Shown piece by piece: positions 14,613 to 64,000 of a DNA stretch of 64,000 nucleotides. Location: assembly GCA_027618475.1 (NCBI GenBank), contig JAQCEJ010000013.1, positions 1 through 64,000 of the forward strand. The letters run 5' to 3'. The notes below the pieces were generated by a model that did no database searches, had not been told where the DNA came from, and saw only the letters and a list, made by a program, of their open reading frames with translations. The position numbers and the translations under genes were made by a program. Each line of letters begins with the position of its first letter. Position 1 is the first letter of the stretch. Source of the stretch: Planctomycetota bacterium. Lineage in GTDB: Bacteria; Planctomycetota; Planctomycetia; Planctomycetales; Planctomycetaceae.

Positions 14613-14614
14613 GC

Positions 14615-16162: not shown

Positions 16163-16173
16163 ATGATCATTTT

Positions 16174-20019: not shown

Positions 20020-20111
20020 GAGATTCGAACAGTGCGTTACAAACTGATAGAATGCAATCAGATTCTTCATAATCCAAGGCAATTCGCGACGGTGTAAGAG
20101 TCTCGTAAGAA

Positions 20112-20142: not shown

Positions 20143-20149
20143 CGTGGAA

Positions 20150-23311: not shown

Positions 23312-23313
23312 GA

Positions 23314-47035: not shown

Positions 47036-47422
47036 AATGCGGTCTCCTCAACGAACGGAAAGGGGTGAAATCATACGGCGATCAACACAGATGATAATAC
47101 ACAACATTCGTAGTGTAAATAGTTTGATACATAAATGTAAAGCGATGCGAGAATATGAATGAAAGGAAGCGGTTCATTTGTTTACTGTTTTATCGAGCAC
47201 GATTGAGTTATAGGCGTATAGAAAGTCTGTGGTCGCTGGCTAAAAGTTCAAGGCCTAAACAACATCGAGGCCCGGAAACAAATAAAATAATTTTTATGGC
47301 AATTATGGCCCGAATGTTTTGCAATCAGGTATGGGTTTAATGTTAAGATAAGGCGACATAGGTCGGATTCCGGATTCAAGTTCTGGTTGTGCGCCAACTC
47401 ACTTTCAAAAAGGATTTCGAGC
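47036..47422. other. 387-bp AT-rich divergent intergenic region
   Basis: No gene is supported. The region is clearly AT-richer than its surroundings and lies between two divergent genes, so it should hold promoters for both the HMA-like gene and the DUF1549/1553 gene. An AAAAAGGA element at 47407-47414 is the likely ribosome-binding site of the latter. A weak GGCCT/AGGCC pair (47252-47272) has no obvious role. Confidence 0.55.
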
Positions 47423-49708
47423 GTGGCAAAACTTGTGCGTAGAAATTTCAACTGGCTGAGGTTGTCGAGTTCTTGCCTGCTTCCTTTCGTCGTTTTGCAG
47501 GCGATGTGGATCACCTCGGAATATTCCCTGGTCAAGGCGGCAGAAAAGAAGTCGGGCAAATCCTCCTCATCTGATGTGCTCAAGGCTGCGACAAACGAGC
47601 TTTCCGCCGACCATGTCTCAGGCGGATCGATCGATGAAGTGCTGAATCAGGAAAATGTCACGCGAGGCGTTAAAACAGCACCTCTTCCGCTGGTGTCGGA
47701 CCTTGCCTTCATTCGGCGTTTATCGGTCGATCTTATTGGGCGTATTCCGACGACCGCTGAAATTGAAGAATTTGAGAGTTGGCCCGAAGCGGAACGTCGC
47801 ACGATGCTTGTCGATCAATTGATGAGCGATGACCGCTTTGTCGATCGTTGGACGACCTTCTATGCAGATCTCTTGCGGCTGCGCTCTAACGCAGAAGGGG
47901 GAGCAGCGGCAATCGCATACATTCATCGGTCTCTGGCCGACGAAGTCCCCTACGATGAATTGTGTCGACAACTGATCTCGAAGAACGGTAAAGCGGGTGC
48001 AGTCCCTGAAGTTGGTTTCATTCTTGGTGATGGGGCCGATCCGATGGCGATGGCTGGTGTAACGTCACAGGTCTTCCTCGGTATTCGCGTCGCTTGTGCC
48101 CAGTGCCACGACCATCCGTTCGATGTCTGGAAACGAGAAGATTTTTACGGATTAGCCGCGTTTTTCGGAAAGACCCGTCGTGTCGAAAACCAGTTCACCA
48201 ACACGATTTACACGACCGAAGCCGGAGATACACTGGTCCTCTGGCCCCCTGAGGGCGTCGGTAAACCGGAAGAGCGCAAACCGATGGAGCCCCGTTTTCC
48301 ATTTGCGATGTTGCCGGAAGATCATCCGAGCGTCGTTCGCTTGAATGCGCGCCGCAAAGCGCTCGCCGCCGAAAAAGCTGCTCTATTGGCGCAGCAAAGT
48401 GCCGAAGTCGATACCGATGACGTCTTGGACGATCTGCTGGCAGATGCCGACAAAAAAGTCGAACAACAGACGCGAAAAGAGGGTATCGATGAGTCACTCG
48501 AAGAGGCCCGCACCGAGGTTCGTAAGATCGGCAGAACGGGTGGGCGTAATACCACGAGTGAATGGCGGACAGAACTGGCTGAAGAAATCACCAGTCCCCG
48601 CAATCGTTATTTCTCGCGCTGTTTCGTTAACCGCGTCTGGAACGAACTGATCGGCCGCGGATTTGTCAATCCTCTCGATGACTTCAACCAGAACAATCCC
48701 CCGAGCCATCCTCAGTCACTCGATTATCTTGCCGATGAATTTGTCGCCAATGGTTACGATCTGAAGACCCTTGTCCGAATGATCGTCACCAGCGATATTT
48801 ATCAGCGAGGTCACACCGACATCGCCGAAGAATCGGTGCGGAACGAACTGGAAGAATCGTTCCTCGCACTCCCTCACCGCCGCATGAATAGCGAAGCGCT
48901 GTACGACAGCATTGTTATCGCCGGACATTTGTTTGGGGTGAAGCATGAAGCGGGCAAGAACATGAAGACGGTCTGGACCGAAACCCGAGTTCCCAAACAG
49001 CCGGGAGGTTTGAATTCTCCATTGCTCGCCGGGGGCGACGGAAAATCGATGAAGCGAGAAATGGCTGCCGCCGACTCAGAAGAGCCGTTGCCCGGTTATA
49101 GTCTTGAAAGTGCTGTCGAACTCGACTTTGACGCATTGCTCGAAGAAAATCCCGAGGATCTCGTTGCTGCTGACGACGAGGGTGAAGGGGTCAAAGTCGA
49201 ACAAATGCGTGCCATGTCGAAAGAAGAAATTGAAGCCGAGCGGATGCGGATGCAGGCTCAGCAGAATTCCTTTTCGTATATCGAACGATTTGTGCGGCAG
49301 AGGATCGACGACAATCCCTCCTTTATCAGTTCATTCCGAATGGCATCCCCTGCGGATTCCGAACACTTTCTGAGAGTATTTGGTCAGCCGGAGCGCATTC
49401 AACTGGGTGAAACGCGAGATCATGCCCCATCGATGCGGCAAGCCTTGATGTTGCTCAATGGTCGCCTGAGTCACGAGGCCGCTCGAGTGGGCGAACTCGA
49501 ACCCATTTTTGAATACCTCGTTGGTCCCAGGAAGAATATCGAAAAGGCCGTCGAACTGGCTTATGTCGAAGTACTGACCCGCAAACCGACCAGCCAGGAA
49601 GTCGAAGAGGGGGTTGAAATCGTCAATACGGCTGACAACTCTCTCAATGGTGTCGCCGACTTGCGTTGGGTACTGCTGAACTGCAACGAGTTTCGTTTTG
49701 TTCCCTGA
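47423..49708 (+). CDS. DUF1549/DUF1553 (PSD) domain cytochrome-like protein
   Basis: 761 residues from the GTG at 47423, chosen for AAGGA just upstream and because the signal peptide (~1-40) then has normal length; a TTG at 47387 is possible. DUF1549 spans ~50-265 ('FIRRLSVDLIGRIPTTAEI', 'EVPYDELCRQLI') and includes C225-A-Q-C228-H229, a CxxCH site. A charged Ala/Glu/Asp-rich coiled segment (~300-385) follows. DUF1553 then covers most of the rest ('RYFSRCFVNRVWNELIGRG', 'LDYLADEFVANGYDLKTLVR'). The family is typical of Planctomycetes and its role is unknown. Its usual DUF1501 partner follows after 81 bp. Confidence 0.93.
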   Translation: MAKLVRRNFNWLRLSSSCLLPFVVLQAMWITSEYSLVKAAEKKSGKSSSSDVLKAATNELSADHVSGGSIDEVLNQENVTRGVKTAPLPLVSDLAFIRRLSVDLIGRIPTTAEIEEFESWPEAERRTMLVDQLMSDDRFVDRWTTFYADLLRLRSNAEGGAAAIAYIHRSLADEVPYDELCRQLISKNGKAGAVPEVGFILGDGADPMAMAGVTSQVFLGIRVACAQCHDHPFDVWKREDFYGLAAFFGKTRRVENQFTNTIYTTEAGDTLVLWPPEGVGKPEERKPMEPRFPFAMLPEDHPSVVRLNARRKALAAEKAALLAQQSAEVDTDDVLDDLLADADKKVEQQTRKEGIDESLEEARTEVRKIGRTGGRNTTSEWRTELAEEITSPRNRYFSRCFVNRVWNELIGRGFVNPLDDFNQNNPPSHPQSLDYLADEFVANGYDLKTLVRMIVTSDIYQRGHTDIAEESVRNELEESFLALPHRRMNSEALYDSIVIAGHLFGVKHEAGKNMKTVWTETRVPKQPGGLNSPLLAGGDGKSMKREMAAADSEEPLPGYSLESAVELDFDALLEENPEDLVAADDEGEGVKVEQMRAMSKEEIEAERMRMQAQQNSFSYIERFVRQRIDDNPSFISSFRMASPADSEHFLRVFGQPERIQLGETRDHAPSMRQALMLLNGRLSHEAARVGELEPIFEYLVGPRKNIEKAVELAYVEVLTRKPTSQEVEEGVEIVNTADNSLNGVADLRWVLLNCNEFRFVP

Positions 49709-49789
49709 TATAGACATTAGGTTGTTCCCGCATTGTGTTCTGTGCATCGAAAAAACTACTATTTTAGACGTTGAACAAGGAGTTCGCTG

Positions 49790-51046
49790 ATGAAATCTTG
49801 TCCCGACTATCGCATGACTCGCCGGACGATGCTGGGAGCAACCGGTGCCACGTTGTTCGGCCTGCAGCTTCGCGAATTGCTCGCGTATGCCGACACGGCA
49901 TCGCAGACCAAAGCCGAACACGTCATTCTGTTCTGGAACGGTGGCGGGATGACGCATCTCGATACATGGGATCCCAAACCGGGTCGCCCGACTCAGGGCG
50001 AATTCAACCCGATCGACACGTCAGTGCCGGGAATTCAGATTTCCGAGATCTTCCCACAACTTGCTCAACAAATGCATCATTGTGCGTTGGTCCGTTCGAT
50101 CGCCGGTACTCAGGGAGATCACGGTCGCGGTACATATAATGTGCAGACCAGCTATCAAATGACGCCGAATCTCATTCATCCCGGTTTCGGTTCGGTCGTC
50201 GTTCACGAAAAAGATAAAATGAGCGAGTTGCCGTCATTCGTTTCAATCAGCGGTCGTGCTCCGAGAGCCAGTTATCTCGGTCAGACGTGCGAAGCGTATT
50301 TCGTCGGTGCCCCCGGCGAAAAAGACCCGTATCTTGCCTTCCCTGAAGGGATTACGCAGGTCCGTGGCAACAGCCGGCTCGAAGTTCTCGAACGCTTTAA
50401 TCAGCGTTACAGTCAGAAGAACCCCGGAGAGTCGAATGTCGCCACAAAAACAGCGATCGGCGACGCCGTCAAATTGATGCGCAGTCCGGCGCTGTCGGCG
50501 TTCGAACTCGATAAGGTTCCGACCACGATGCTTAACCGATACGGCGACAATACGTTTGGTCGGGGAGTCATGCTTGCGAAACAGCTTGTCGAAACGGGTG
50601 TTCGTTTCGTGCAGGTCAATCGTGGTGGATTTGATACTCACTCCGCCAACTTCCCGGCGATGCAGGCACATGGCGATGTGATGGACCCGGCTCTCGCTTC
50701 GCTTGTCGAAGATCTCGCCGAATCGGGTCTGTTGAAGAAGACGCTGATTGTCATGCTCAGTGAATTCGGACGCACGCCAATGATCAATGAAGACGCAGGT
50801 CGCGATCACTGGGCCAACGTATTCAGTTGCTTTATTGCCGGAGGGGGTATTACCGGTGGAACGGTCATCGGTTCTTCTGATGAAGACGGCTATGAACCGA
50901 AAGACCGTCCGGTTCAGGTCGCCGATCTGCACGCGACGTTCTGTCAGACGCTCGGAATTGACCCGGCGAAGGAAGTGATGACGCCGCTCCGTCGACCGAT
51001 GAAACTTGTCGACAACGGTACACCGATTGCGGAACTGTTTGCGTGA
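49790..51046 (+). CDS. DUF1501 family protein
   Basis: 418 residues with a twin-arginine-type leader ('TRRTMLGATGATLFGLQLRE', ~10-29). Family features: 'LFWNGGGMTHLDTWDPKPG', 'GVRFVQVNRGGFDTHS', 'MLSEFGRTPMINEDAGRDH' and 'CFIAGGGITGG'. AAGGAG at 49777-49782 supports the start. It forms the standard pair with the DUF1549/1553 gene before it, unlike the DUF1501 gene at 1907. The two DUF1501 proteins share key motifs but differ in length and in the central region. Confidence 0.94.
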   Translation: MKSCPDYRMTRRTMLGATGATLFGLQLRELLAYADTASQTKAEHVILFWNGGGMTHLDTWDPKPGRPTQGEFNPIDTSVPGIQISEIFPQLAQQMHHCALVRSIAGTQGDHGRGTYNVQTSYQMTPNLIHPGFGSVVVHEKDKMSELPSFVSISGRAPRASYLGQTCEAYFVGAPGEKDPYLAFPEGITQVRGNSRLEVLERFNQRYSQKNPGESNVATKTAIGDAVKLMRSPALSAFELDKVPTTMLNRYGDNTFGRGVMLAKQLVETGVRFVQVNRGGFDTHSANFPAMQAHGDVMDPALASLVEDLAESGLLKKTLIVMLSEFGRTPMINEDAGRDHWANVFSCFIAGGGITGGTVIGSSDEDGYEPKDRPVQVADLHATFCQTLGIDPAKEVMTPLRRPMKLVDNGTPIAELFA

Positions 51047-51425: not shown

Positions 51426-53930
51426 GTGATCGTCATTCGCCAATCGCTGAAATCATTGTTGGTGCTGCTCACGATCGGCACCGGTTTCCTGCTTTTCGGC
51501 TTGGAACTCTCCCGTTCCCAGGATTCCGCCAATGAGGCTGCGCCTGACGAGTCGACATCAGGTTTGCGCGGCTCGATTATCGAAGATCGAACCGCATCCA
51601 AACTGATCGAAGCGGGCGATTCCCGCATGGATGCCAACGAAGCCGACAAGGCCGTTGAGATTTGGGAATCGGTTCTCGAACGATATCCCCGCAGCCGTTA
51701 TCGTTTCGTCGCCCATATGCGCTTGGGTGATTATTACCTTCAGCGCGACCGCTCGTACGATAAAGCCCGCCTGCATTTCGAAGCTGCCGCCAGCGAAGAA
51801 AACTCCGACGAAGAACAGCGGGCCGAAGCCACGCTCCGTCTCGGTGTCGCACATTTCGAATCGCGCAATCACGGGAAATGCTTTCAGGCGATGCGAGACG
51901 TCATCGAAAAATTTCCCGTCAGCCCTCAGGTGAATCACGCGTATTACTACATCGGCCTGGCTCACTTTCAATTGGGACATTACAGCCGTGCTATCGCCGC
52001 TCTGGAAAAAGTAGGAACGAATGTTTCCGAAGAAGACGGTATGACCCCTAAAGTGGAAGCCGGCAAACGGTTTTTCGTCAAAATTGAAGATGCCGATCTC
52101 GCCGTACTCGAATCCAATCAGGCAATTGATGTCAAATGTACTACGAAAAGTGGCGACTCTGAACTCGTAAAGTGCTATCCGGTGGGGCGAAACGTTCGTA
52201 TCGCACTCGGAAGCATTCCCACGGCATTGGGAAAGACGGTGCAGGGGAATGGCCGACTCGAAGTCATCGGCAACGACGAAGTACATATCACTTACATCGA
52301 TTCGCACACAGCCGACCGCACATTCGATCGACCTGTCGACAAGCAGATAATGATCGTAAGTAACGCTATGGTGCAGGTCATGGACGGCGCATTCAACGAA
52401 GCTCTGCAGGGGGTCGTCCTTGATAAATCGATGAATCTACAGATCATCGATCTCGATCGGGATCTCGGTGACGACGCCGATACATTGACGGCAATCGTCG
52501 AAGTCTTTCGCGTCAAGACCGAAGAAGAGCTCGAGAATGAAGCAATTGCCCTGCAACAACAGGCGGCGACTCAACCTCCTGTGGAGAAAGCAGAGGATGA
52601 TATCGACATCCCGGGTGACGAAGAGGAAGTCGATCGTCTGAAACGTGTCGACCGACTGGAAGTGACTCTCACCGAAGCAAAGATCAAAGTGACATCCTCT
52701 CCAACGCTTCCCTCGCCCGATGATGATGATGAGTCGAGATCTGCCGCTCAGTCCGAAGACGAGAAATCGAAAACCGAATCCAGAAAAACAGCCGATGATA
52801 AGAAGGCCGAAAAAGTCAAAAAAGAGGACGTAGGGGATCAACCGTCACCGGCAAGTGACGAGCCCGAATCACCGCTGAATGCTTCTGCCGAACCGGTTGA
52901 TGATGGTTCTGTACATAGCGGAGTCTTTCGCGGCAACGTGCAACTGACGAAAGCAGACGAGGTCGTCGAAAATGACGATCAATTGCAGGCTCGTCCCGGT
53001 GATCTTGTAAGAATCAGTTATATCGACGACCGAAACCTCTCACCCGATTCGCAAATTGTGCTCGGCGAAGTCCGATGCATCGAAGGCAATCTGGGAGGGG
53101 TTCGCGTGACGCGCGCGATGATTTCCAATGAAGAGCTTCGGGTCCGCACGAAATTAAAGACCGCCGATGCTCTGATGAACATTGGCAATCGTTATAAAGA
53201 ATTCGGTCTCGGCGAGAATGCGACGCGAAAATATGAAAATGCATTGCAGGTTTGCGAAGAAATCATGCAGGAAGCAACCCAGACGGGAGGTGCGCTGCTT
53301 GAAGAAACGTACGTGCAACTCTGGCAGATTTATTTTGCAATGGATCAGCTTGATCTCGCCGCAGTAATGGCGTCGAGACTTCAACGAGAGTTTCCACAAA
53401 GCGGTTTTGTCGACGATGCTTTGCTGCAGCTTGCCGACGTTGCCCGGAAGCAGAAAAACTACAATCGGGCGATCGGTATTTATACTCGGCTGGTCAATAT
53501 GCAGACGAGTCAACTCCGTGGTGACGCACAATTCGGAATTGCCGAATGTTACGACGAAATGGCCGCAGTCGCTTCGGAACTGCAGGGCAATCAACTCTAC
53601 GATCGGGCATTTCAAGAATACAAAAAGGTCTTCGATCAATATCCCGAAAGCGGTCGGGTTGGCGAAGCGGTTGCCAAAATGGCCAATTACTATTACCGCC
53701 AGAAGGACTATACGCGGGCGATCGATACCTTTGAAACCGTCCTCGCCAGCCATCCAGATGCGAAATTTCTTGATGTCATTCTCTTTAACTATGGGCGATG
53801 TCTCTACCGCATGAATCGTCGGGACGATGCCCGGCGACGGTTCGATCAATTGATTTCCGATTATCCGGAAAGTCCGCTCGCTGTCGATGCGAAGAAAATA
53901 TCGGAAGCGCTGGCAAAAGCCTCGAACTAG
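51426..53930 (+). CDS. Secreted TPR protein with repeated beta modules (module B)
   Basis: 834 residues from the GTG at 51426, chosen for AAAGGGGG just upstream; a TTG at 51402 is in frame. Signal peptide or anchor at ~4-26. TPR-like repeats (~50-195) are followed by two copies of a beta module: one at ~215-335 ('FFVKIEDADL', 'EVHITYIDSHTADR'), and one beginning at ~335 ('LQIIDLDRDLGDDADTL') and ending with 'VHSGVFRGNVQL' and 'DLVRISYIDDRN' at ~495-545. The second copy is split by a ~75-residue Lys/Glu/Asp-rich insert (~421-495). A second TPR array (~575-830) closes the protein. The same modules occur in the next, giant protein. It is probably a periplasmic or surface scaffold. Confidence 0.85.
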   Translation: MIVIRQSLKSLLVLLTIGTGFLLFGLELSRSQDSANEAAPDESTSGLRGSIIEDRTASKLIEAGDSRMDANEADKAVEIWESVLERYPRSRYRFVAHMRLGDYYLQRDRSYDKARLHFEAAASEENSDEEQRAEATLRLGVAHFESRNHGKCFQAMRDVIEKFPVSPQVNHAYYYIGLAHFQLGHYSRAIAALEKVGTNVSEEDGMTPKVEAGKRFFVKIEDADLAVLESNQAIDVKCTTKSGDSELVKCYPVGRNVRIALGSIPTALGKTVQGNGRLEVIGNDEVHITYIDSHTADRTFDRPVDKQIMIVSNAMVQVMDGAFNEALQGVVLDKSMNLQIIDLDRDLGDDADTLTAIVEVFRVKTEEELENEAIALQQQAATQPPVEKAEDDIDIPGDEEEVDRLKRVDRLEVTLTEAKIKVTSSPTLPSPDDDDESRSAAQSEDEKSKTESRKTADDKKAEKVKKEDVGDQPSPASDEPESPLNASAEPVDDGSVHSGVFRGNVQLTKADEVVENDDQLQARPGDLVRISYIDDRNLSPDSQIVLGEVRCIEGNLGGVRVTRAMISNEELRVRTKLKTADALMNIGNRYKEFGLGENATRKYENALQVCEEIMQEATQTGGALLEETYVQLWQIYFAMDQLDLAAVMASRLQREFPQSGFVDDALLQLADVARKQKNYNRAIGIYTRLVNMQTSQLRGDAQFGIAECYDEMAAVASELQGNQLYDRAFQEYKKVFDQYPESGRVGEAVAKMANYYYRQKDYTRAIDTFETVLASHPDAKFLDVILFNYGRCLYRMNRRDDARRRFDQLISDYPESPLAVDAKKISEALAKASN

Positions 53931-54007
53931 ATTCCACACTTGAATTTCAATCGCTGACGAGAAGCGATCTCAGTTTCCACTGAACCATCTCGTGAAAGGA
54001 TTTCCGT

Positions 54008-57000
54008 ATGAAACGCCCTGGAACCCTAACGCTGTTCGTCTTGGCGATTTTAAGCGGTCTCTTCTGTCTAAACCTTTACGGTCAGGCCAAACCGGATCAG
54101 GCCGATTCGCAAACCTCGTCGTCCGAAGTCGTCGACGAGGTCTCGCGGCAAGCCATGATTCTGGAAACCGAACTAAGCAAGTATAAGGCAACGGCCCCCG
54201 AAGCAGCTGATGTGATGGTGGAGTTGGCCGACCTGTACCACGCAAACGGTCGCGCTTTTGGTCTGATTCGTGTTACCCAACGCTTTGTCGGTGCGCATCC
54301 CGATGACAATCGGCATCAGCAGATGATGCTGAAATTGATCGACGGTCTCGACGCGGTTTCGCGGAATAAAGAAGTCACTGCAGCGTGTCGTCAATTCCTG
54401 TCGAATTACCCCGACGCAGCGGAATGCCCGGCGATTGAAATCCGTCTGGCCGATGCCCTGTTGCAGATGCCCAACGAACAGGACGCCACCGGCGACGCCT
54501 GTCGTGCTGTCTGGAAACGTCAGCCTCAGACCGATCTTGGTAAGCGTTATGCGCTGCTGTCGCAAACGTATTATGCATCGTCATACGACAAAAATGTCTA
54601 CACCAAGGGGGCGATGCTTGCCGACGAAATGCTCGATGAGATGCCGGCCGATGGGTTCCTCGATGAAATTGCCTGGCAGGGAGTTGCTCAATGGCGTCGC
54701 GGCAGCGAGTGGGCAAAGAGCATCGGTACGGCTCAAAAGATGATTGCGAAGGGAATCCCCACAGACAAGCAACGACTTCGGCAAATTCATTACTGGATCG
54801 CTCAAAGTTATAGCTCGCTCGGTCAATGGGCCAACGCGGTTGCCAGTTTCAAACAGGCACGCGCGATGTTGGATGATATGGATATCCATTATCAAATCGT
54901 GAACGTGATGTACAACGATGCGGCGATCAAAGCCGCCGAAATGGATCCGGTCGTCACCGAGTTCTTTCAAAAGTATCCCGACAAAACCGACCGGTACTTA
55001 TTGCGCGGCCTGCTCGCTCTCAAGTACGAACGGGAAGGGGAAAAGGCAACGGCTCATCGGTTGTTCGGAGAACTGTTGAGTTTTGATGCCGCCCGCAACA
55101 ATCACGCTTCGGCCTTTCTTCGGACGGATCCCAATAACAGCGATCCGAATGTTCCGCCGAATTACTCGGCATTGGAATCGACCCTCGTTCAGGCGATAGC
55201 GAATAATCCCACCGATTACGACCGCGCCTACCTCCGGTATGTATTGGCGTATGAGTTGTATCGCGACCGTATGAAGGACGATGCCAAAATGCGAGCGACG
55301 CTGCGCGAGCTTATCGTGCAGTCACCCACAAATGACAGCTACACTCGCAGTGCAATCGAAACATTACTTTACACTCCAGAGAGCGAGCAATCCTTTCAAG
55401 CCGACGTCGGGTTAATTCTCAAGTCACGCCGCGATCATGTCGAACTGGCGACCTTTCGCAATATGCCCGTGAACTGGGCCGATCAGGCCGTCAAGAACGA
55501 CATGCACAAAGCTCATGCCGAATACATGACGGCGCAACTCGCTCAGGCCGATCAGGACATTGTCATGCGACATTGGATCATCGGCGAATCGAATGATGCA
55601 GCCGCTCCTCAGTCGCGCGATCATCTGATTCTCACACAACTTGGTGCTCTCAACGATAAACAGTTTCAGCAGATTGTTTCTCAACAGGCGTACTGGCTAC
55701 GCTATTCAGCTCCGGCCGATCAGCGTCCGAACTGTGTGGCAATGTACGGTCGACTGATTCAGAAATTCCCCAAGGACGAAAACTTTGCGCTGGCGTATCT
55801 TCAAGCTGCCACCGATTATGGTCCTGTCGAAATCGCCAAAGCGGCGACCGAGCATATGCTCACGCTGATTCCTGTCGCTCATAATGCAGAAACGTATCGT
55901 CGCTTGGCTTTGGCCGTCGATCAGAATAAAGACCCCGAACTGATGAAGAAGGTGCTTAACTGGATCGCCGCCCAGGAACAACGTCTGGGACAAAGCGTCG
56001 GTTATGCCTACTACATCGGCGACGTATTGGCCAATCTGGAACTACTCTCCGACGCGATGGCGTACTGGCGTTCGCATCTGGCGACCGATTTGAATCAATC
56101 GGATTCTTATAATTGTGCGTTGCGAATTGCCCGCAATCTGGCCGATGCCGAGCGAATGCAGTTCCTCACCGAACTCACGCAGCTCGACACCATTTATCAT
56201 GGCACTTACGCCACGTGGCTCGCGGATGAGTATTTGAAACTGAACGATCTCCCGAAATTCCAGGCAACATTACAAGCCGCTCGCAAAAAACAGGACGCCA
56301 TATTCTATCGAACCTGGGCTGTCGATTCGAATCCGGCGATATCGTGGATCCATAATTGGCGCAACAACGCTGAAGCGGCTGAGGCCGACAAGAAATTGAT
56401 CTACTCGGCCGTTCGCGACTTTAACGCCGGACTCCCCTCTGCCGTCGCCGAACTGGCACTTTGGGAATTGACGCTGAAAGATGACGTTGCTCCGATGGCG
56501 TATTTACTCGCACTTCAGAATGCGACCCGTACAGCCGGTGATAGTACGTACGACTGGGATCAGATGAATATCTACGCCCAATCGGCTCTTTCTCGGAAAG
56601 ACTACATTACCGCCGCGACGTTGCTTACTGGCATGCTATCGAATATTCCCGCCGTTGATGAAGGGCGAAAGCAATCGGGTCGGGAGTTCGTAGCGCAGAG
56701 TTATTCGCGCATCGGTGGCGTCGGTGTCACGATTGACGAAAAAAGTGAAATTGCACCCCTTCTACAAGCCGGTCTTCATTTGCGATTGGGGGATGAAGAT
56801 TTGGCGTGGCAAACCTATTTGAACAATCTTGCTTTGTTTGATGCCCACCGTTACGAAGTTCCCGTCGATCTGATGTTATTCGTTTGCCAGCGGCACATCG
56901 TGGCCGGCGGCGACGATAATCATAATCGAGTCGAAGATATTCTACGTGGGTGGCTGGTGAAGTACGGAGAAGCGAAGGAATTCGACACATCGATTACGGC

Positions 57001-60000
57001 CGAAGTTCAACTGCTGCTGGCGAAGAATTTCTTCCAGGCTAAACGATTTGATGTTGCTCGCTCCGAATACTCAACGGTGATGAACCGATATCCCGAAACG
57101 CCGCAGGCAGTCGAAGCCGAATTCGGTATCGGTGAATCGTTCATGGCACAAAAGGTCTACGATCAGGCCGAATCGGTGTTTGAAAAGCTTTCGAACAGCC
57201 GCGATACCGACATTGTCGTCCGCGCCGAATTTCTCCGCGGCGTGCTCGCTCATCGTCGCGGTGACCCGGACGAAGCACGCAACATTTTCCGTGCGGTGCT
57301 CGACAAAGTCCCCAGTATCGAACTGGCAAACCAGGCGTTGTATCAGCTTGCCGAAGTGTATCGGGAAGAAGAACGTTATATGGATCAGCTTAATCTGCTC
57401 AACACCGTCGGCAGGTTAGGTCGCGCCAGCAAACGGACGCATCGTCCCGGTACGTCGTTGTCGGTCGTCGTTCAAGACAGCGACCTCGGGATCAGCCGTG
57501 GTCAAAATAAGGTTCCTGTCATCGTCACGACCGAACCTGGAGGGGACCGTGAGATCGTTTATCTGACATCGGGCGGCGCGGGGCGAGGCCTGTTCCGAGC
57601 CGATCTTGATACACGTCTCGGTGAAGTCGTACAAGGCGACCACGTATTACAACTCACGGGAAAGGATATTATCCGTTGCGATTATCCCGATGAATTCAAG
57701 AAAGAATTCCGCAAAGTGCCGCTGTCGGACGTCGAAATCCACATGGCGGCTGACGGAAAATTTGAAATGGCGAGCAGTCGTATCGTCGATCAGAAACAAG
57801 AATCGTTCAGCGACCAGCTTCAAAAAGAAGTCGACGACAGTCCCGAAGCGATCGAGCGGCGGGCTTCGCAGATTCGTCCGGCGTGGCAGGTCAAACCGGG
57901 GAATCAGATTTATCTACGCGTTGAAGATGCAGATCGCGATAACTCGAACGAACCCGATGAAATCGTCGTCCGACTGAATGCCGAGAGTGGCGATTCGTTG
58001 CAGGTTACCATGACCGAAACGGGACCGCATACGGGGATTTTCGAGGGGACAGCGCCGACCGGAGAGCTTCCAGCCGGGGCACTCGCCAGTGATACCGCGA
58101 TACAGCATAGTCCGCTGATGGCGATCGACCGGGATCCGAATACGTTCTGGATCAGTGAACCCGATGGAGCAACTCCCAAGTTTCTCACCGTGGATATGAA
58201 GGATTTGAAAACGGTCAATCGATTACGAATCAGTTCGCCCCGTGCCGACCAGCATATTCCGATTCGCGGTGATATTCTCGGTAGCAACGACGGACAATTC
58301 TGGTTCCGTATGGCGTCGCATCCTCTTCCCGACCCGACACCGCCGGTCACCGAAGAATTTGGCCATATGAAACGCCGCGTCTTTGCCGGCAATTATACCG
58401 GCTATTCGAACTGGCAGCAGATTCTTAATCTCAGCCGTAATATTCAACCGGTCGAAGAGGACGAGGTAACAGAACTGTTATGGTCGCGTCCTGCCGATGC
58501 TGAAGATGCGGCGGAACCATATACTGTGATCTGGGAAGGATTGCTCGTTCAAGACCGCCCGGGAGCAGCACGCATTTATGTGCAGGGTGTCCGCACAGCC
58601 GTCTGGATCGATGGAAATCTCGAACTTCCCGTAGGACAGGGTAACCGTTCGGTTGATGTCTGGCTCGAAGCGGGAACTCATCCGCTGACGATCTTCGCTG
58701 CGACGACCAATGCTGCTCAGGGAGTTGGTGCCACGATAGCCAGGGAAGATCACCGTGCCGACAGCATTGTGGCATTGCCATTCCGGGCTGCCGATTTTGA
58801 TCTCGATCGAGCCGATCTCAAACCGGCAACGCCTCGGGCTCCGATTCGAAGTGATTTTGGCCGCACCGAATGGACGATGGAATTCGAACCGATGGAACTT
58901 CGGTACGTCAAACTGATGATTCACGAATTCCTCGGTGAGGCCGTCGCCATCAATCATGTCGAAATCGCCGGCGAGGACGATGAAATCTTTATTCCGACCG
59001 AGTACGACATTCTGACGCTTCCCGATAACGATATTCTCGAAATTGCGGGAGGCGATATCATCACCGGTACGTATACCGATGAATTTACGCAAGGTGAACT
59101 TGAACACAGTCGACTGCTTTCAAGCCAGTTGACCGCCACGTATTATAACGCATCGGTGACCCCGATTACGTACGAATTTCAGCGAAATACCAACGGCAAT
59201 GTCTTTACCATTCGTAAAACATTAAAACGAATCGAACCGGGCGAACGGTTCATCGTCGAGATCGTCGATTTTGATCACGACCAGACCGATGAACCCGACA
59301 CTCTTCCCTTCGAGCTGATTGCATCGAATGGAGACGTTGTCGAATACATCGCTACGGAAACCAACCCCAACACCGGTATCTTCACAAAGGAAATCGACAC
59401 GTCAGCCGTAAAAGAAAATGGCAAGATACACGTACAAAAAGGAGATCGACTTTATCTCCGATATATCGATACGCAAAATACGTTCCCCGGACACGCCGTT
59501 CCGCGTGAAACCGCAGTGTATGTCAATCAGCCCTCAGAAGGGCAGATTCGAATTCTCGAGTCGCGAGTCATTCCTGCTGCGGATCCGCAATTAGGACCGC
59601 CGCAGTTCATTTATCAGGTGACGGACGACCGGCCGGCGACGGCATCGGTTGCCTTTGAGGCCCCACTGACCATCGAGGTCATCGATCCCGACTCGGCGAA
59701 GGATAGCGGCAGCAAAGTGACGGTCTCGGTGAAAACGACAGACGGCGCGATTGTCGATGTCGAATGCGTCGTCTCTGGTGCCTTTACGCGAACGGCGTCT
59801 CAGGTTTCCGGAGCGGCTGCCGATGCGATTGCACTCGAAGACGGACGCTTTGTTGGGCAGGTCATCCTGCAGCTCGGCAGTAAGGCGAGCCCCACCCTCG
59901 TGCCGGTCCATTCCGAAATGCCTCGGAATCTCATCGGGGGACCGAACGTGGATGACGAAAACGGTAAAACATCAGCCGTCGATCGAAGTCTGGTGACAAA

Positions 60001-61333
60001 GGTTCTCAACCTCACCGGTAAAGATCGCATCACCGGCATCTACAAAGACGAACTTCGACCGAAGGGTAAAGCACAAAGTCTCGCGGCGAACGCCCGTTTG
60101 GTTACTACGGGAAAACTCGCCTGTACCGACCGCGAATACAACAAACTGGTGACCCAGTTACATGTCGGCGAACGATTGTTTCTTCGTGTCGACGACGCCG
60201 ATCGAGATGTGACCGATGATCGCGACGCCATTGAAGTCGAAATCACAACCGAGTTCGGTGATAAAGAGCTGATTCCGCTGTTTGAAACGCTTCAGCACAG
60301 CGGTCAATTTACGGGGTCACTCACGCTCAAACCGAGTGAAAAACCAACTCCGAATAACATTTCCGCCGATGATCCGGCGATCGAATGCTTTTTCGGCGAT
60401 ACGCTGTCGATCCGGTATTTCGATCCGTCCGCCAGCACCGAACAGGGAAAACTCGAACTGCTCGAAGAAATTCCGGTCGTCATCGGCACCGATGGTCTGG
60501 TCACCGCGTTCAGCAAAACGTTCAACAACGAACAACTCGCGGTCGAAACGAAATTTCATATCGCCGAGAGCTATTTTGAACTCTTTAAGAGTCACCAGGA
60601 ACTGGGTCGTAAGGCCGATTTCCAGACCGATCTCGAAGCCGGTCGACGGGTGCTTAAGGAAGTTATGGAGGATTACCCCGATCCGAAGTACGTCCCACGC
60701 ATTGCTTATCTATTGGGGCAGTTCTCGCAAGAGCTGAAGCAATGGCACGAGGCGATTCAATCGTACGATTTGATCGTGCGTCAGTATTCCGATCATTCGC
60801 TCGCCGCCGATGCGCAGTACAAGCTGGCACAATGCCACGAAGAAGCGGGCGATTTCGATCAGGCACTGGAAGCGTACGTCACTCTCGCTGCGACATATCC
60901 GAAGAGCCCGCTCATCGCCAGCGTGATGATCCGCATCAGTGATTACTTCTATAAAAACGGACGGTTCGAGGTCGCGGCGCAGGTCGGCGAAAAATTCCTC
61001 GAACAGTTCGAGGGACATCAACATTCATCACGCATGGCATTCCGTAACGGCCAATGTTATTTCAAAGCCGAAAGCTTCGTAAAAGCAGGAATTTCATTTG
61101 ACCAGTTTTCCAAGCGGTTCCCCGATGATGCTCTCTGTTCAGACGCGATGTTCTGGTCAGGCGAAAGTTTTCGCAAGGCGAACAACAATGTCGAAGCCTT
61201 TCGGCGTTATAACCGCTGTCGCTGGGATTTCCCCGCCAGCGAAGCGGCGAAATTCGCTCGTGGCCGATTGGCCCTTCCCGAGATGTTGCAACAATTCGAA
61301 TCCGAAGCCAGCGCAGTTGAGAACGATAACTAA
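54008..61333 (+). CDS. Giant secreted TPR / beta-module / discoidin-like protein (module B)
   Basis: 2441 residues. Signal peptide 1-27. TPR-like repeats fill ~40-1125. Repeated beta modules follow from ~1147 to ~2110: the best copies are at ~1298-1356 ('LRVEDADRDNSNEPDEI', 'TETGPHTGIFEG'), ~1744-1800 ('VDFDHDQTDEPDTL', 'TETNPNTGIFTK') and ~2054-2111 ('LRVDDADRDVTDDRDAI', 'LQHSGQFTGS'). Each is linked to a 'GKDxIxxxYxDEF'-like segment. Two inserted regions at ~1360-1440 and ~1621-1670 look like halves of an F5/8-type (discoidin) domain, with a PA14-like region between (~1503-1574). TPR repeats resume at ~2171-2441. Aspartates in the modules may bind calcium. Its stop overlaps the ExbB start (TAATG), so it is probably made in step with the motor. 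Confidence 0.88.
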   Translation: MKRPGTLTLFVLAILSGLFCLNLYGQAKPDQADSQTSSSEVVDEVSRQAMILETELSKYKATAPEAADVMVELADLYHANGRAFGLIRVTQRFVGAHPDDNRHQQMMLKLIDGLDAVSRNKEVTAACRQFLSNYPDAAECPAIEIRLADALLQMPNEQDATGDACRAVWKRQPQTDLGKRYALLSQTYYASSYDKNVYTKGAMLADEMLDEMPADGFLDEIAWQGVAQWRRGSEWAKSIGTAQKMIAKGIPTDKQRLRQIHYWIAQSYSSLGQWANAVASFKQARAMLDDMDIHYQIVNVMYNDAAIKAAEMDPVVTEFFQKYPDKTDRYLLRGLLALKYEREGEKATAHRLFGELLSFDAARNNHASAFLRTDPNNSDPNVPPNYSALESTLVQAIANNPTDYDRAYLRYVLAYELYRDRMKDDAKMRATLRELIVQSPTNDSYTRSAIETLLYTPESEQSFQADVGLILKSRRDHVELATFRNMPVNWADQAVKNDMHKAHAEYMTAQLAQADQDIVMRHWIIGESNDAAAPQSRDHLILTQLGALNDKQFQQIVSQQAYWLRYSAPADQRPNCVAMYGRLIQKFPKDENFALAYLQAATDYGPVEIAKAATEHMLTLIPVAHNAETYRRLALAVDQNKDPELMKKVLNWIAAQEQRLGQSVGYAYYIGDVLANLELLSDAMAYWRSHLATDLNQSDSYNCALRIARNLADAERMQFLTELTQLDTIYHGTYATWLADEYLKLNDLPKFQATLQAARKKQDAIFYRTWAVDSNPAISWIHNWRNNAEAAEADKKLIYSAVRDFNAGLPSAVAELALWELTLKDDVAPMAYLLALQNATRTAGDSTYDWDQMNIYAQSALSRKDYITAATLLTGMLSNIPAVDEGRKQSGREFVAQSYSRIGGVGVTIDEKSEIAPLLQAGLHLRLGDEDLAWQTYLNNLALFDAHRYEVPVDLMLFVCQRHIVAGGDDNHNRVEDILRGWLVKYGEAKEFDTSITAEVQLLLAKNFFQAKRFDVARSEYSTVMNRYPETPQAVEAEFGIGESFMAQKVYDQAESVFEKLSNSRDTDIVVRAEFLRGVLAHRRGDPDEARNIFRAVLDKVPSIELANQALYQLAEVYREEERYMDQLNLLNTVGRLGRASKRTHRPGTSLSVVVQDSDLGISRGQNKVPVIVTTEPGGDREIVYLTSGGAGRGLFRADLDTRLGEVVQGDHVLQLTGKDIIRCDYPDEFKKEFRKVPLSDVEIHMAADGKFEMASSRIVDQKQESFSDQLQKEVDDSPEAIERRASQIRPAWQVKPGNQIYLRVEDADRDNSNEPDEIVVRLNAESGDSLQVTMTETGPHTGIFEGTAPTGELPAGALASDTAIQHSPLMAIDRDPNTFWISEPDGATPKFLTVDMKDLKTVNRLRISSPRADQHIPIRGDILGSNDGQFWFRMASHPLPDPTPPVTEEFGHMKRRVFAGNYTGYSNWQQILNLSRNIQPVEEDEVTELLWSRPADAEDAAEPYTVIWEGLLVQDRPGAARIYVQGVRTAVWIDGNLELPVGQGNRSVDVWLEAGTHPLTIFAATTNAAQGVGATIAREDHRADSIVALPFRAADFDLDRADLKPATPRAPIRSDFGRTEWTMEFEPMELRYVKLMIHEFLGEAVAINHVEIAGEDDEIFIPTEYDILTLPDNDILEIAGGDIITGTYTDEFTQGELEHSRLLSSQLTATYYNASVTPITYEFQRNTNGNVFTIRKTLKRIEPGERFIVEIVDFDHDQTDEPDTLPFELIASNGDVVEYIATETNPNTGIFTKEIDTSAVKENGKIHVQKGDRLYLRYIDTQNTFPGHAVPRETAVYVNQPSEGQIRILESRVIPAADPQLGPPQFIYQVTDDRPATASVAFEAPLTIEVIDPDSAKDSGSKVTVSVKTTDGAIVDVECVVSGAFTRTASQVSGAAADAIALEDGRFVGQVILQLGSKASPTLVPVHSEMPRNLIGGPNVDDENGKTSAVDRSLVTKVLNLTGKDRITGIYKDELRPKGKAQSLAANARLVTTGKLACTDREYNKLVTQLHVGERLFLRVDDADRDVTDDRDAIEVEITTEFGDKELIPLFETLQHSGQFTGSLTLKPSEKPTPNNISADDPAIECFFGDTLSIRYFDPSASTEQGKLELLEEIPVVIGTDGLVTAFSKTFNNEQLAVETKFHIAESYFELFKSHQELGRKADFQTDLEAGRRVLKEVMEDYPDPKYVPRIAYLLGQFSQELKQWHEAIQSYDLIVRQYSDHSLAADAQYKLAQCHEEAGDFDQALEAYVTLAATYPKSPLIASVMIRISDYFYKNGRFEVAAQVGEKFLEQFEGHQHSSRMAFRNGQCYFKAESFVKAGISFDQFSKRFPDDALCSDAMFWSGESFRKANNNVEAFRRYNRCRWDFPASEAAKFARGRLALPEMLQQFESEASAVENDN

Positions 61334-62265
61334 TGATACGCATACTATTGATTCTGACGACTTTCATGGGATTCTGGTCGATTTCTGTTCCCGCTGTATT
61401 TGCACAGGATGAGGCGGATTCCACCTCTCCGGCTGCGTCACCGGAGGATTCATCCGTGAATTCGTCGGCAGTCAGTGACGGCACAGCTAAAGGCGATGGT
61501 ACAGCACCGTCCGATGAATCTATGGAAACAGTTGACTCTGCAACCGACGATTCCGGATTCATGAGTCGTTTCAGTGAGATGCTGCATTCCGGTGCGATGG
61601 GTCTGATGTTGAAGGGGGGGCTCTTTATGTGGCCCATTCTTCTCATGGGAATTGCGGCATTCGGCGTAATGATCGAGCGATATCGCAGTCTGAAAATGCT
61701 GGCGACCGATACACAGGCCCTGCGATCGCAAGTCCGATCGTTTCTCGAACAGGACCAGGTCGAGGAAGCACTGGAATTGTGCGAAAATCAACCGGGCCCG
61801 GTCCCCGCGATTCTCTCTGCCGGTTTGCGCAAGTACGTTGTTCTTCGACGACTGGGGTACGACGCCGCTCGCATTGAAGAGCAGGTTGTCAAGGCGATGG
61901 ATGATTACGGCATCCACGTCGTCGCTGCTCTTGAGAAACATTTGCCGAGTCTGGCGACTGTTGCCAGTGTCGCTCCCATGCTCGGTTTTCTTGGGACGGT
62001 CTCGGGCATGGTAAATTCGTTCGACACCATTGTTGCTCAAATGGGGGAAACAAATATCGTTGAAGCCGCGGCAGGGGGAATCAGCGAAGCGTTGCTGACG
62101 ACCGCATTCGGGCTCATCGTCGGAATTCCCGCTTATGTGACATTCAATTATTTTACGAGCGTCATCAATCGGTTCGTCCTCGAAGTCGAGGAATCGGCAA
62201 CCGAACTCATCGAAACGGTGACGCTGCAGATGGCATTGAGACAACGCGAATCCACAGAGGCCTGA
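61333..62265 (+). CDS. MotA/TolQ/ExbB proton channel protein with signal peptide (module B)
   Basis: 310 residues. Unlike the copy in module A it begins with a cleavable-looking signal or extra TM (~1-25) and a Ser/Asp/Glu-rich linker (~26-85). TM helix at ~95-117 ('GGLFMWPILLMGIAAFGVMI'). The conserved pair is 'VAPMLGFLGTVSGMVNSFD' and 'GISEALLTTAFGLIVGIPAYV'. It forms the proton channel with ExbD in the inner membrane. The ATG at 61333 shares a base with the previous stop. Seven consecutive G at 61614-61620 encode the Lys-Gly-Gly just before the TM helix. Confidence 0.92.
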   Translation: MIRILLILTTFMGFWSISVPAVFAQDEADSTSPAASPEDSSVNSSAVSDGTAKGDGTAPSDESMETVDSATDDSGFMSRFSEMLHSGAMGLMLKGGLFMWPILLMGIAAFGVMIERYRSLKMLATDTQALRSQVRSFLEQDQVEEALELCENQPGPVPAILSAGLRKYVVLRRLGYDAARIEEQVVKAMDDYGIHVVAALEKHLPSLATVASVAPMLGFLGTVSGMVNSFDTIVAQMGETNIVEAAAGGISEALLTTAFGLIVGIPAYVTFNYFTSVINRFVLEVEESATELIETVTLQMALRQRESTEA

Positions 62266-62330
62266 AGTGGCGATGAGCAGAATGATCCCGATGATTTTTC
62301 GACGACACGAAATATGAGCTGATCAGTAAT

Positions 62331-62768
62331 ATGCTTCAGAAACTCAAACGATCGAATCGGTTGCTCGTTGAGCCTCCCGCTGCGGCATCCGGAGATATTG
62401 CGTTCAATCTGATTGTGTTCTTTCTGGTTTGCGCGTCGATTCAGCCCGATCGTGGTTTCAAGCAGACGATTCCGCGTAGTGAAACACAGAACGAACAGAA
62501 ACAGGACGAACCACAGAACATCGAAATCCAGTTGACGCGAACAGCCGTGCTGATTAACGGTACAAACGTTCCGATTGCCGAGTTCGTCGGCCGGCTGCGG
62601 TCGCAACTCAGCGGTAAGACGCGCCCCGAAGATCGCGTCGTCATCGTCAAGAGTCAAAAGGATACCCCCTACAAACATTGGATTGACGTCACCACCCGTA
62701 TTGAAGAAGCGGGTGGAATCGTCACGCTGCAAATGGAAGAAGAACGAACCGTAACGCTGCCGCAATAA
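62331..62768 (+). CDS. ExbD-like protein with GDIAFNL motif (module B, first copy)
   Basis: 145 residues. A short basic N terminus is followed by one TM helix (~22-42). D22 in 'SGDIAFNLIVFFLVC' lines up with the proton-coupling aspartate of ExbD (the D of the 'LIDVMLVLLI' type motif), but the residues around it differ from classic ExbD. The periplasmic domain (~60-145) has 'PIAEFVGRLRSQLSG' and 'VVIVKSQKDTPYKHWIDV', which fit ExbD. A 65-bp gap separates it from ExbB, and a second copy follows 2 bp after the stop. The two probably form a heterodimer in the motor. Confidence 0.85.
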   Translation: MLQKLKRSNRLLVEPPAAASGDIAFNLIVFFLVCASIQPDRGFKQTIPRSETQNEQKQDEPQNIEIQLTRTAVLINGTNVPIAEFVGRLRSQLSGKTRPEDRVVIVKSQKDTPYKHWIDVTTRIEEAGGIVTLQMEEERTVTLPQ

Positions 62769-62770
62769 TT

Positions 62771-63187
62771 ATGAAGATTTCCCGTCGAACAATGCGATGC
62801 GATGTGCCGAACACGGCGATGGGGGATATTGCGTTCAATTTGCTCATCTTTTTTGTGATTCTCGCCCGCGCGCAAGACGACAGCCATCTGCATTGGAATC
62901 CGGCACAGGCTGAAAAACTCGAATCGTCAGGAAACTCGGTCGTCAGCGTTCTCGTCGATTCTGAAAACAAATTGTATCTTAATGGCTCCGAAATCGGCAT
63001 TTCGCAACTCGCAGATCGAATCGAAGAACTCCTCGGTAATATGCCGGCGGGAAAACGAATCGTGCTTCTGAAAGTGCATCAGGATATTCTCGCCCAACGG
63101 TTCGAACCGATTTTAGAGGCGATTAGTGAAGCGGGAGGCGATCTGGTGCATATTCTGGAAGAGAATAAAACGTCAACCCCGAAATGA
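62771..63187 (+). CDS. ExbD-like protein with GDIAFNL motif (module B, second copy)
   Basis: 138 residues, starting 2 bp after the first copy. TM helix ~19-38 with D19 in 'MGDIAFNLLIFFVILA', the same seven-residue motif as in the previous gene. The periplasmic part keeps the pattern 'ISQLADRIEELLGNM' and 'IVLLKVHQDILAQRFEPI'. The two genes look like an old tandem duplication, still similar in DNA around the motif, that diverged outside the TM region. It should be a second ExbD subunit. Confidence 0.84.
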   Translation: MKISRRTMRCDVPNTAMGDIAFNLLIFFVILARAQDDSHLHWNPAQAEKLESSGNSVVSVLVDSENKLYLNGSEIGISQLADRIEELLGNMPAGKRIVLLKVHQDILAQRFEPILEAISEAGGDLVHILEENKTSTPK

Positions 63188-63211
63188 TTTAATGAATTAC
63201 GAGAAGAACTC

Positions 63212-63667
63212 ATGACACAACAGAATCCATCCGGGCTGCGTGGTGACATCAGTCGTCTAAAGGAACATGGCGGCACGACGGTCGCCGAACTCCAGGACTT
63301 TGTCCGCCAATTGCATGGTCGAAGTCCCAGTGAAGTGCTGGGGATCGTTTCCGGGAACCTGCTGATTCGCTCGTTACTTGAAGCCACGGCTTATATGGCG
63401 GTCCTCATTGCCCTCTTGACGGTGATACCTTTCATGCTGAAGTCTGACGCGCCTCCCAAGGCCGCAGCGACGCCCGCCGCCGTTAACGCGCCGGCCAGCA
63501 CGACTGATGCGACTGCGCCGGTGAGTCCGACCACGTCGGATGACGACCTCAGCGAAGAGAACGCGCAAAAAGCGGTCGAAGTCATGGGGCTGGGCGAGAC
63601 GAAAACGGCCGACCCAGATAAAAATCCGCTCGATAATCTCGATAACCTTTTGGATGATGTGAAATAA
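63212..63667 (+). CDS. One-TM protein with Pro/Ala/Thr-rich tail (module B)
   Basis: 151 residues. A charged N-terminal part (1-50) with 'VAELQDFVRQLHGRSPSEVLG' precedes one TM helix at ~54-76 ('LLEATAYMAVLIALLTVIPFML'). Then come a Pro/Ala/Thr/Ser-rich linker (~80-113) and an acidic end ('NPLDNLDNLLDDVK'). No family is recognised. Its size, single TM and extended linker resemble TonB/TolA-like couplers without a C-terminal domain, so a link between motor and partner is conceivable. It starts 24 bp after the second ExbD. Confidence 0.75.
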   Translation: MTQQNPSGLRGDISRLKEHGGTTVAELQDFVRQLHGRSPSEVLGIVSGNLLIRSLLEATAYMAVLIALLTVIPFMLKSDAPPKAAATPAAVNAPASTTDATAPVSPTTSDDDLSEENAQKAVEVMGLGETKTADPDKNPLDNLDNLLDDVK

Positions 63668-63700
63668 CCGTTTGCACTTTAGCACATATTCAGTAACCGC

Positions 63701-64000
63701 ATGCTACCAAGTCTTTCCAGAATCCGGTCGAACATCGACACCATCACGGCGAGCGTCCTAGCCGTATGGATGGTCGCGATCGCCGACTGGTTTTTGACGA
63801 AACGCCTGCCAGCCGTGGTGACAGCGTTATTTATGCTTGCTGCCGTGGGTTATCTCGGCCGTCTTGCGTTTCAGACGTCGAGACAACCGATACGGGCGAT
63901 CCGCACGTTGAATTTACAACTGTCGGCATTGTTTATAGTGACGTGGCCGTTCGTGGTCTGGGTGTTGGACATGCTCGAACTCCGCGAGGCGAGTGCGATT
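63701..64000 (+). CDS. Membrane protein, 3' end cut by the window edge
   Basis: An ATG at 63701 opens a frame with no stop to the end of the window (100 codons). The product has at least three hydrophobic helices ('ITASVLAVWMVAIADWFL', 'VVTALFMLAAVGYLG', 'LSALFIVTWPFVVWVLDML') joined by short basic loops. It lies 33 bp after the one-TM protein and belongs to the same cluster. No family is recognised from this part. Confidence 0.65.
   Translation, partial: MLPSLSRIRSNIDTITASVLAVWMVAIADWFLTKRLPAVVTALFMLAAVGYLGRLAFQTSRQPIRAIRTLNLQLSALFIVTWPFVVWVLDMLELREASAI

What the first reader, a model, noticed from the sequence alone, without database searches (positions are those of the whole stretch)
51426..64000. 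Module B: giant secreted TPR proteins coupled to an ExbB/ExbD/ExbD motor without TonB
Seven closely spaced plus-strand genes encode an 834- and a 2441-residue exported protein, then ExbB, two ExbD-like proteins and two membrane proteins. The giant gene and exbB overlap (TAATG). ExbB/ExbD normally drive TonB or Tol (established); here no TonB or receptor gene is visible in the cluster. I infer that the PMF-driven motor acts on a giant periplasmic or surface scaffold, perhaps for macromolecule uptake, envelope remodelling or movement. I know of no described system with this set.
Basis: partly seen in the sequence, partly recalled or inferred. Interest (0 to 1): 0.8.

Follow-up and report, generated by a model that had tools for sequence, protein, structure and literature searches.

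The report
Giant TPR scaffold with proton motor
A conserved block of about ten genes in Planctomycetota and Verrucomicrobiota pairs a proton-driven membrane motor of the ExbB/ExbD type with a giant, probably sugar-binding periplasmic protein, which makes it a good candidate for the unknown machine by which these bacteria handle large molecules such as polysaccharides.

Summary
The 834-aa protein, the 2441-aa giant, ExbB, two ExbD and two membrane proteins lie where stated, and giant/exbB overlap in TAATG. The unit is larger than reported: it starts with a PSCyt2/PSD1 + DUF1501 pair (47387-51046) and runs past the window through a DUF4159 membrane protein and another TPR protein.

The giant-motor link is supported by comparative genomics. 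Gene order is conserved in most of 80 named loci, nearly all Planctomycetota/Verrucomicrobiota. In 60 same-family genomes giant and DUF4159 protein co-occur (16 both, 2 giant only, 0 DUF4159 only, 42 neither). In 8 of 9 distinct split-operon genomes the giant sits elsewhere. Motor Thr/Asp residues are conserved.

'Without TonB' needs qualification. The genome has no TonB domain or TolB. But the DUF4159 protein has TonB/TolA-like topology, and in a sister clade it and the 151-aa protein carry a TonB-type transmembrane His that the window's clade lacks. The giant has a predicted CBM32 fold with a PA14-like insertion and a CpoB-like TPR end.

Best reading: a PMF-driven trans-envelope machine with a glycan-binding scaffold, probably for polysaccharide handling or uptake (inferred). 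Closest published: PVC TolQ-TolR-TolR-vWA loci and AglRQS-Glt. New variant of a known kind.

The parts
47387..49708 (+). PSCyt2/PSD1 (DUF1549/DUF1553) protein, 773 aa; upstream member of the conserved unit
   Evidence: Pfam 9e-37/9e-48; directly upstream of DUF1501 + protein A in 6 of 7 same-family contigs that reach far enough, and in L077
49790..51046 (+). DUF1501 protein, 418 aa, RR-type N-terminus (MTRRTML)
   Evidence: Pfam 4e-99; one ortholog stands out at 61-86% identity (next paralog <=41%) in 11 of 12 genomes, at a position consistent with just upstream of A in 10; own genome has 127 DUF1501 matches
51426..53930 (+). Protein A, 834 aa, exported; TPR - beta - TPR; partner of the giant
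   Evidence: CpoB/YbgF model TIGR02795 120 bits, over cut-off 90
54008..61333 (+). Protein B, the giant, 2441 aa, exported scaffold
   Evidence: orthologs
58067..58984 (+). Giant residues ~1354-1659: CBM32/discoidin-type carbohydrate-binding fold
   Evidence: AF2 model pLDDT 76.8; VIA-align Z 17.2, 121 aa, 2.0 A to 4zz5; F5/8C Pfam in 24 of 25 orthologs
58385..58792 (+). Giant residues ~1460-1595: PA14-like beta domain inserted in the CBM32 fold (approximate limits)
   Evidence: Foldseek 6x8a and other PA14 sugar-binding domains, E ~1e-6
60485..61297 (+). Giant residues ~2160-2430: C-terminal CpoB/YbgF-like TPR domain
   Evidence: TIGR02795 129 bits, over cut-off 90.1; among the most conserved parts of the giant
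61333..62265 (+). ExbB/TolQ-like proton channel, 310 aa, with N-terminal signal-like extension
   Evidence: PF01618; best NCBIfam model TolQ 117.7 bits, under cut-off 221; Thr222 and Thr257 invariant in 71 sequences
62331..62768 (+). ExbD1/TolR-like
   Evidence: PF02472 8e-17; TM Asp22 in 74 of 74
62771..63187 (+). ExbD2/TolR-like
   Evidence: PF02472 2.5e-12; TM Asp19 in 79 of 80
63212..63667 (+). Protein F, 151 aa: cytosolic N-term, one TM, Pro/Ala-rich periplasmic tail; candidate short transducer or tether
   Evidence: sister-clade orthologs carry a TM His (11 of 11)
63701..64000 (+). Protein G, start of the 478-aa DUF4159 protein (continues to contig position 65137): 4 TM + TM5 + linker + periplasmic GATase-like domain; candidate main transducer
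   Evidence: PF13709 7e-32; AF2 of ortholog pLDDT 83; Z 23.4 to 4i66. Protein H (TPR 555 aa, C171:65104-66771) follows outside the window

Best explanation
It is a PVC-lineage, proton-driven trans-envelope machine. Shown by sequence: a TolQ/ExbB-type channel and two different ExbD-type rotors with intact proton-path residues sit in a conserved unit with a giant exported TPR/beta protein, a smaller related TPR protein, a five-TM protein with a periplasmic GATase-like (DUF4159) domain, a short single-pass protein, another TPR protein, and a DUF1501 + PSCyt2 pair. Inferred: the ExbB pentamer and ExbD pair move with the PMF; protein G (helpers: F, H) carries the motion into the periplasm, as TonB or TolA do, through its last TM helix, linker and globular domain; the motion acts on the TPR ends of proteins A and B, which lie in the periplasm and hold glycan through the CBM32/PA14 modules of B. 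The cycle pulls, releases or loads polysaccharide or another glycan-bearing polymer across or along the envelope; uptake into the large planctomycete periplasm is the most likely use.
For: Motor residues: ExbB Thr222 and Thr257 71/71, ExbD1 Asp 74/74, ExbD2 Asp 79/80. Gene order conserved in distant families and, where the contig reaches, exbB 57/62, D1 64/66, D2 67/68, F 70/72, giant 50/59 of named loci. Giant kept elsewhere in 8 of 9 distinct split-operon genomes. Co-occurrence 16/2/0/42, Fisher 1e-12 ignoring kinship. Genomes with solo giants have the G protein elsewhere. G: TMH-linker-globular topology, fold of 4i66. TonB-type His in F (11/11) and G (11/13) of the sister clade. Predicted glycan modules in B. 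CpoB-like TPR in A and B over the curated cut-off. No TonB_C or TolB in the genome. Patchy distribution suits an accessory function. Independent phenotype: planctomycetes take up dextran and GFP into the periplasm, with no dextran uptake in CCCP-treated cells, mechanism unknown (PMC5394234); chondroitin sulphate uptake (PMC5520146).
Against: No experiment links any of these genes to glycan or uptake. No outer-membrane barrel, receptor or CAZyme lies in the conserved unit, so how cargo would cross the outer membrane is not explained. CBM32/PA14 folds are also used for cell-surface attachment, and the glycan could be the cell's own. In the window's own clade F and G lack the TonB-type His, so the transducer role of G rests on topology and on the sister clade. 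Whether A and B sit in the periplasm or on the surface is not shown. DUF1501/PSCyt2 functions are unknown.
Confidence: 0.42

Rival explanations
1. A Tol-Pal substitute: the motor energises envelope stabilisation, with A, B and H as enlarged CpoB-like proteins and G as a TolA analogue that loads a tether at the outer membrane or cell wall.
For: Closest profile of the ExbB is TolQ; CpoB/YbgF-type TPR over cut-off in A and B; no TolB in the genome; gene order motor - transducer - TPR resembles tol-pal-cpoB.
Against: Patchy: absent from 42 of 60 same-family genomes, odd for an envelope housekeeping system; no Pal or OmpA-like protein in the unit; glycan-binding modules unexplained.
Confidence: 0.22
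2. A surface machine like AglRQS-Glt/Nfs: the motor moves the TPR scaffold along or through the envelope to drive gliding or to lay down a surface polymer or stalk/fibre.
For: Same kit: one TolQ-like, two TolR-like, no TonB gene in the motor cluster, TPR proteins of 1191 and 4132 aa (PMC3169522 Table 1); glycan modules would suit polymer handling.
Against: No Glt family reaches its cut-off (GltE 19 bits against 225); no OM beta-barrel or FHA/TonB (GltG-like) gene in the unit; gliding is not a known planctomycete trait (own knowledge).
Confidence: 0.15
3. Assembly or export of an extracellular matrix or S-layer-like coat: the giant is itself exported to the surface and the motor powers its transport or anchoring.
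For: Beta domains give a weak hit to the anammox S-layer model (3.7e-5, far below cut-off); PA14/CBM32 adhesin-like domains.
Against: The TPR domains (CpoB-like at the C-terminus) suit periplasmic protein binding; ExbBD motors are not known as exporters (own knowledge).
Confidence: 0.12

Closest known systems
PVC vWA force-transducer loci (Williams-Jones et al. 2025, PMC12204202)
   Same: TPR gene, TolQ-like gene, two different TolR-like genes, a TM-tethered periplasmic alpha/beta domain as putative transducer; PVC group; function unknown. The same genome also has such a locus at G000:C50 (L155).
   Different: Transducer domain is DUF4159 (GATase-like, 4i66 fold) behind five TM helices, not a vWA behind one; a 2441-aa CBM32/PA14/TPR giant, a related 834-aa protein, the short F protein and a DUF1501 + PSCyt2 pair are added; the window's clade lacks the TM His.
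Myxococcus AglRQS motor with Glt machinery (PMC3169522)
   Same: One TolQ-like + two TolR-like motor; very large TPR proteins (GltD 1191, GltI 4132 aa); TonB protein absent from the motor cluster.
   Different: No GltA/B/H barrels, no GltG (FHA + TonB_C), no Glt model over cut-off; here the giant carries CBM32/PA14 modules and a DUF4159 protein is present.
Tol-Pal with CpoB (YbgF)
   Same: TolQ-like best match; CpoB-type TPR; transducer-like membrane protein next to the motor.
   Different: No TolB in the genome, no Pal in the unit, two ExbD genes, patchy distribution.
Ton system (ExbB-ExbD-TonB)
   Same: Motor subunits and proton-path residues; TonB-like TM His in sister-clade F and G.
   Different: No TonB C-terminal domain in the genome, no TonB-dependent receptor in the unit.

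Membership tests
MotA/TolQ/ExbB-ExbD/TolR proton motor | PF01618 channel with the two pore Thr | tested here: met
   (9e-27); Thr222 and Thr257 invariant in 71 sequences
MotA/TolQ/ExbB-ExbD/TolR proton motor | PF02472 partner with TM Asp | tested here: met
   74/74 and 79/80
Ton system | TonB C-terminal domain (PF03544) protein | tested here: not met
   none in the whole genome
Ton/Tol-type transducer | TM helix with SxxxH (SHLS) motif | tested here: not met
   absent in F and G of the window and its clade; His present in sister-clade F 11/11 and G 11/13
Ton/Tol-type transducer | TM helix - linker - globular periplasmic C-terminal domain | tested here: met
   G, AF2 of an ortholog with 70% identity; but four extra TM helices precede, and the domain is not the TonB/TolA fold
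Tol-Pal | TolB | tested here: not met
   no PF04052 in the genome
Tol-Pal | TolQ equivalog score | tested here: not met
   117.7 bits against cut-off 221
Tol-Pal | CpoB/YbgF TPR | tested here: met
   TIGR02795 over cut-off in A and B; the model may also match other TPR proteins
AglRQS-Glt | Glt protein families | tested here: not met
   only GltE at 19 bits against 225 in the NCBIfam scan
AglRQS-Glt | One TolQ-like plus two TolR-like subunits | tested here: met
PVC vWA transducer loci | vWA domain in the transducer | tested here: not met
   G matches DUF4159 only in Pfam and the 4i66/class I GATase fold
CBM32 / discoidin fold | fold match of the giant's central region | tested here: met
   Z 17.2; F5/8C in 24/25
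CBM32 | sugar binding | not testable with these tools
   needs a binding assay

The most novel reading that the evidence does not exclude
This is the long-sought energised machine by which Planctomycetota and Verrucomicrobiota take up whole polysaccharides into the periplasm without TonB or SusCD: a proton-driven motor pulls glycan in by working a giant CBM32/PA14 TPR scaffold through a DUF4159 transducer, with the DUF1501/PSCyt2 pair as dedicated partners.
Probability: 0.2. Interest if true: 0.9.

Novelty: new variant of a known kind. Interest (0 to 1): 0.7.

Why it matters
How planctomycetes move macromolecules into their large periplasm is an open question, and their many DUF1501/PSCyt2 genes (127 DUF1501 matches in this genome alone) have no known role. 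This unit gives a defined, conserved gene set with an intact proton motor, a giant with predicted glycan-binding modules and one particular DUF1501/PSCyt2 pair attached, so both questions become testable by single deletions. It also adds a candidate second class (DUF4159) beside the vWA class to the motor-driven force transducers outside Ton and Tol, and shows the TonB-type His missing from both candidate transducers in a whole clade.

Tried and rejected
Horizontal acquisition or mis-binning, suggested when 12 same-family genomes had no giant: set aside after 16 of 60 family members showed orthologs of both proteins and the G tree split cleanly into Planctomycetota and Verrucomicrobiota. Solo giants as evidence against the link: those two genomes hold the G protein elsewhere. 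DUF4159 as an amidotransferase: the Cys position reads DNGG in most of the window's clade, so a catalytic role is unlikely. An alignment of ten diverse G proteins failed as a scan query; a four-sequence alignment worked. The plasmid search gave only general ExbB matches below 60% identity. Papers: no text on DUF4159 or on DUF1501 with ExbD. The Akkermansia mucin-uptake paper (doi 10.1038/s41564-023-01407-w) is not held, so any relation to its MUL1 periplasmic complex is untested. Foldseek also returned weak hits to PLP enzymes and receiver domains for G, which I treat as common-fold noise.

Full report
Observation. The last ORF is cut by the window; on contig C171 (78,485 bases) it ends at 65137 and is a 478-aa DUF4159 protein, followed by a 555-aa TPR protein (34-nt overlap) and a 552-aa lipoprotein-like F5/8C protein.

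The conserved unit. The giant was searched in 246 genomes of the phylum; around the hits the order A - giant - exbB - exbD1 - exbD2 - F - G (DUF4159) - H (TPR) recurs in distant families at 25-60% identity. A scan of named genomes with four aligned G proteins gave 80 loci, nearly all Planctomycetota and Verrucomicrobiota. Where the contig reaches far enough upstream of G, F is found in 70/72, exbD2 in 67/68, exbD1 in 64/66, exbB in 57/62 and the giant in 50/59. I searched ten handles with a split or missing giant whole; two of them (G250, and G317 of L139) gave identical matches, so they are nine distinct genomes. Eight of the nine held a full or near-full orthologous giant elsewhere, at 34-65% identity per matched piece. 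The exception is Rubritalea profundi (L142), where ExbD2's Asp reads Tyr, H is split, exbB is not found beside a run of N, and the DUF1501 ortholog is absent too: the unit looks decayed. In 60 other same-family genomes G and giant co-occur: 16 both, 2 giant only (fragmented assemblies), 0 G only, 42 neither; Fisher 1e-12, which ignores shared ancestry. Two genomes whose giants stand alone have G elsewhere. The link between giant and motor set is therefore well supported.

Upstream pair. PSCyt2/PSD1 and DUF1501 genes precede A in the window. The same pair precedes A in six of seven same-family contigs that reach far enough, in L077, and DUF1501 alone at the edge of L045. In 11 of 12 genomes reached through named loci, one DUF1501 is far closer to the window's (61-86%) than any long paralog (at most 41%), and in ten of them its coordinates fit the place just upstream of A, judged by me from the contig ranges. 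The own genome has 127 DUF1501 matches. The 379-nt gap before A leaves room for a separate promoter.

Motor. ExbB has both pore Thr in all 71 aligned sequences, ExbD1 its TM Asp in 74/74, ExbD2 in 79/80. The nearest named profile is TolQ, below its cut-off; solved TolQ chains match at 4e-19. The genome has eight PF01618 proteins, one of them MotA beside flagellar genes and one in a vWA-transducer locus, and no TonB_C or TolB_N domain.

Transducer candidates. G is predicted to have four TM helices, a fifth (178-202 in ortholog L131), a linker with low confidence and a periplasmic alpha/beta domain that matches 4i66 (Z 23.4, 186 aa, 1.8 A) and then class I glutamine amidotransferase folds (Z about 8-10). 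The nucleophile position is Asn in the window's protein and its clade consensus, so I read it as a binding domain (inference). In the sister clade the last TM of G has a His (11 of 13, with Ser four residues before in 8) and F has a His in its TM (11 of 11, with Ser 5, Thr 1, Ala 5 at -4), counted by me; this resembles the TonB/TolA motor-binding SHLS pattern described in PMC12204202. In the window's clade both lack it. The tree of G separates the two clades and, within the window's clade, Planctomycetota from Verrucomicrobiota (quick tree, long branches present).

The giant. Its N-terminal third is poorly conserved helical repeat; 900-1260 and 2160-2441 are the best conserved parts. The C-terminal TPR passes the CpoB/YbgF cut-off, as does that of A. 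A and the giant are related over 1009-1233. The model of 1131-1700 (pLDDT 76.8) shows beta domains and, at about 1354-1659, a CBM32/discoidin fold (Z 17.2, 2.0 A over 121 aa) interrupted by a PA14-like domain. F5/8C is found by sequence in 24 of 25 orthologs and weakly in three of four sister-clade giants tested. A fold does not prove sugar binding.

Mechanism. Shown: gene set, conservation, residues, predicted folds. Inferred: that the PMF-driven ExbB/ExbD1/ExbD2 motor moves G (and F), that G acts on the TPR ends of A and B, and that the cargo or anchor is glycan. Planctomycetes take up dextran and GFP into the periplasm by an unexplained route, with no dextran uptake in CCCP-treated cells (PMC5394234), and chondroitin sulphate (PMC5520146); this is an independent reason to favour uptake, not evidence about these genes. 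A Tol-like envelope role and a Glt-like surface role remain open; the patchy distribution speaks against an essential envelope role.

Comparison. The nearest published sets are the PVC TPR-TolQ-TolR-TolR-vWA loci, of unknown function (PMC12204202), one of which the same genome also carries, and AglRQS-Glt (PMC3169522). The present unit shares the motor plan with both and the membership of neither. I rate it a new variant of a known kind; the held papers contain no text on DUF4159 or on DUF1501 with ExbD, but most subscription papers are not held.

Noticed in passing
window 12765-25047: A second ExbB/ExbD/ExbD set (13944-16101; second ExbD fused to a zinc ribbon) with a 316-aa single-pass protein, a 1281-aa FHA/PQQ protein and a family 5 solute-binding protein.
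   Followed up: partly
L155 (G000:C50:62001-80000): Published-type vWA transducer locus in the same genome: 358-aa vWA protein with SAVVH TM helix, TPR 360 aa, ExbB, two ExbD.
   Followed up: partly
L142 (Rubritalea profundi NZ_MQWA01000001): Apparently decayed copy: ExbD2 Asp reads Tyr, H split in two, no orthologous giant or DUF1501 in the genome; a run of N lies where exbB should be.
   Followed up: partly
L056 (G185:C16): Two giants of about 2500 aa in tandem before exbB.
   Followed up: no
L058 (G009:C3): Two DUF4159 G proteins in tandem.
   Followed up: no
G000 whole genome: 127 DUF1501 matches in a 5.9-Mb genome.
   Followed up: no
L157 (G000:C165:1-7016) and L156 (G000:C109): Further TPR + ExbB neighbourhoods: 1205-aa and 353-aa TPR proteins before an ExbB, and a 1051-aa TPR protein before another.
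   Followed up: no
C171:68515-73014 (L009:8515-13014), minus strand: 1499-aa WD40-like repeat protein downstream of the unit.
   Followed up: no
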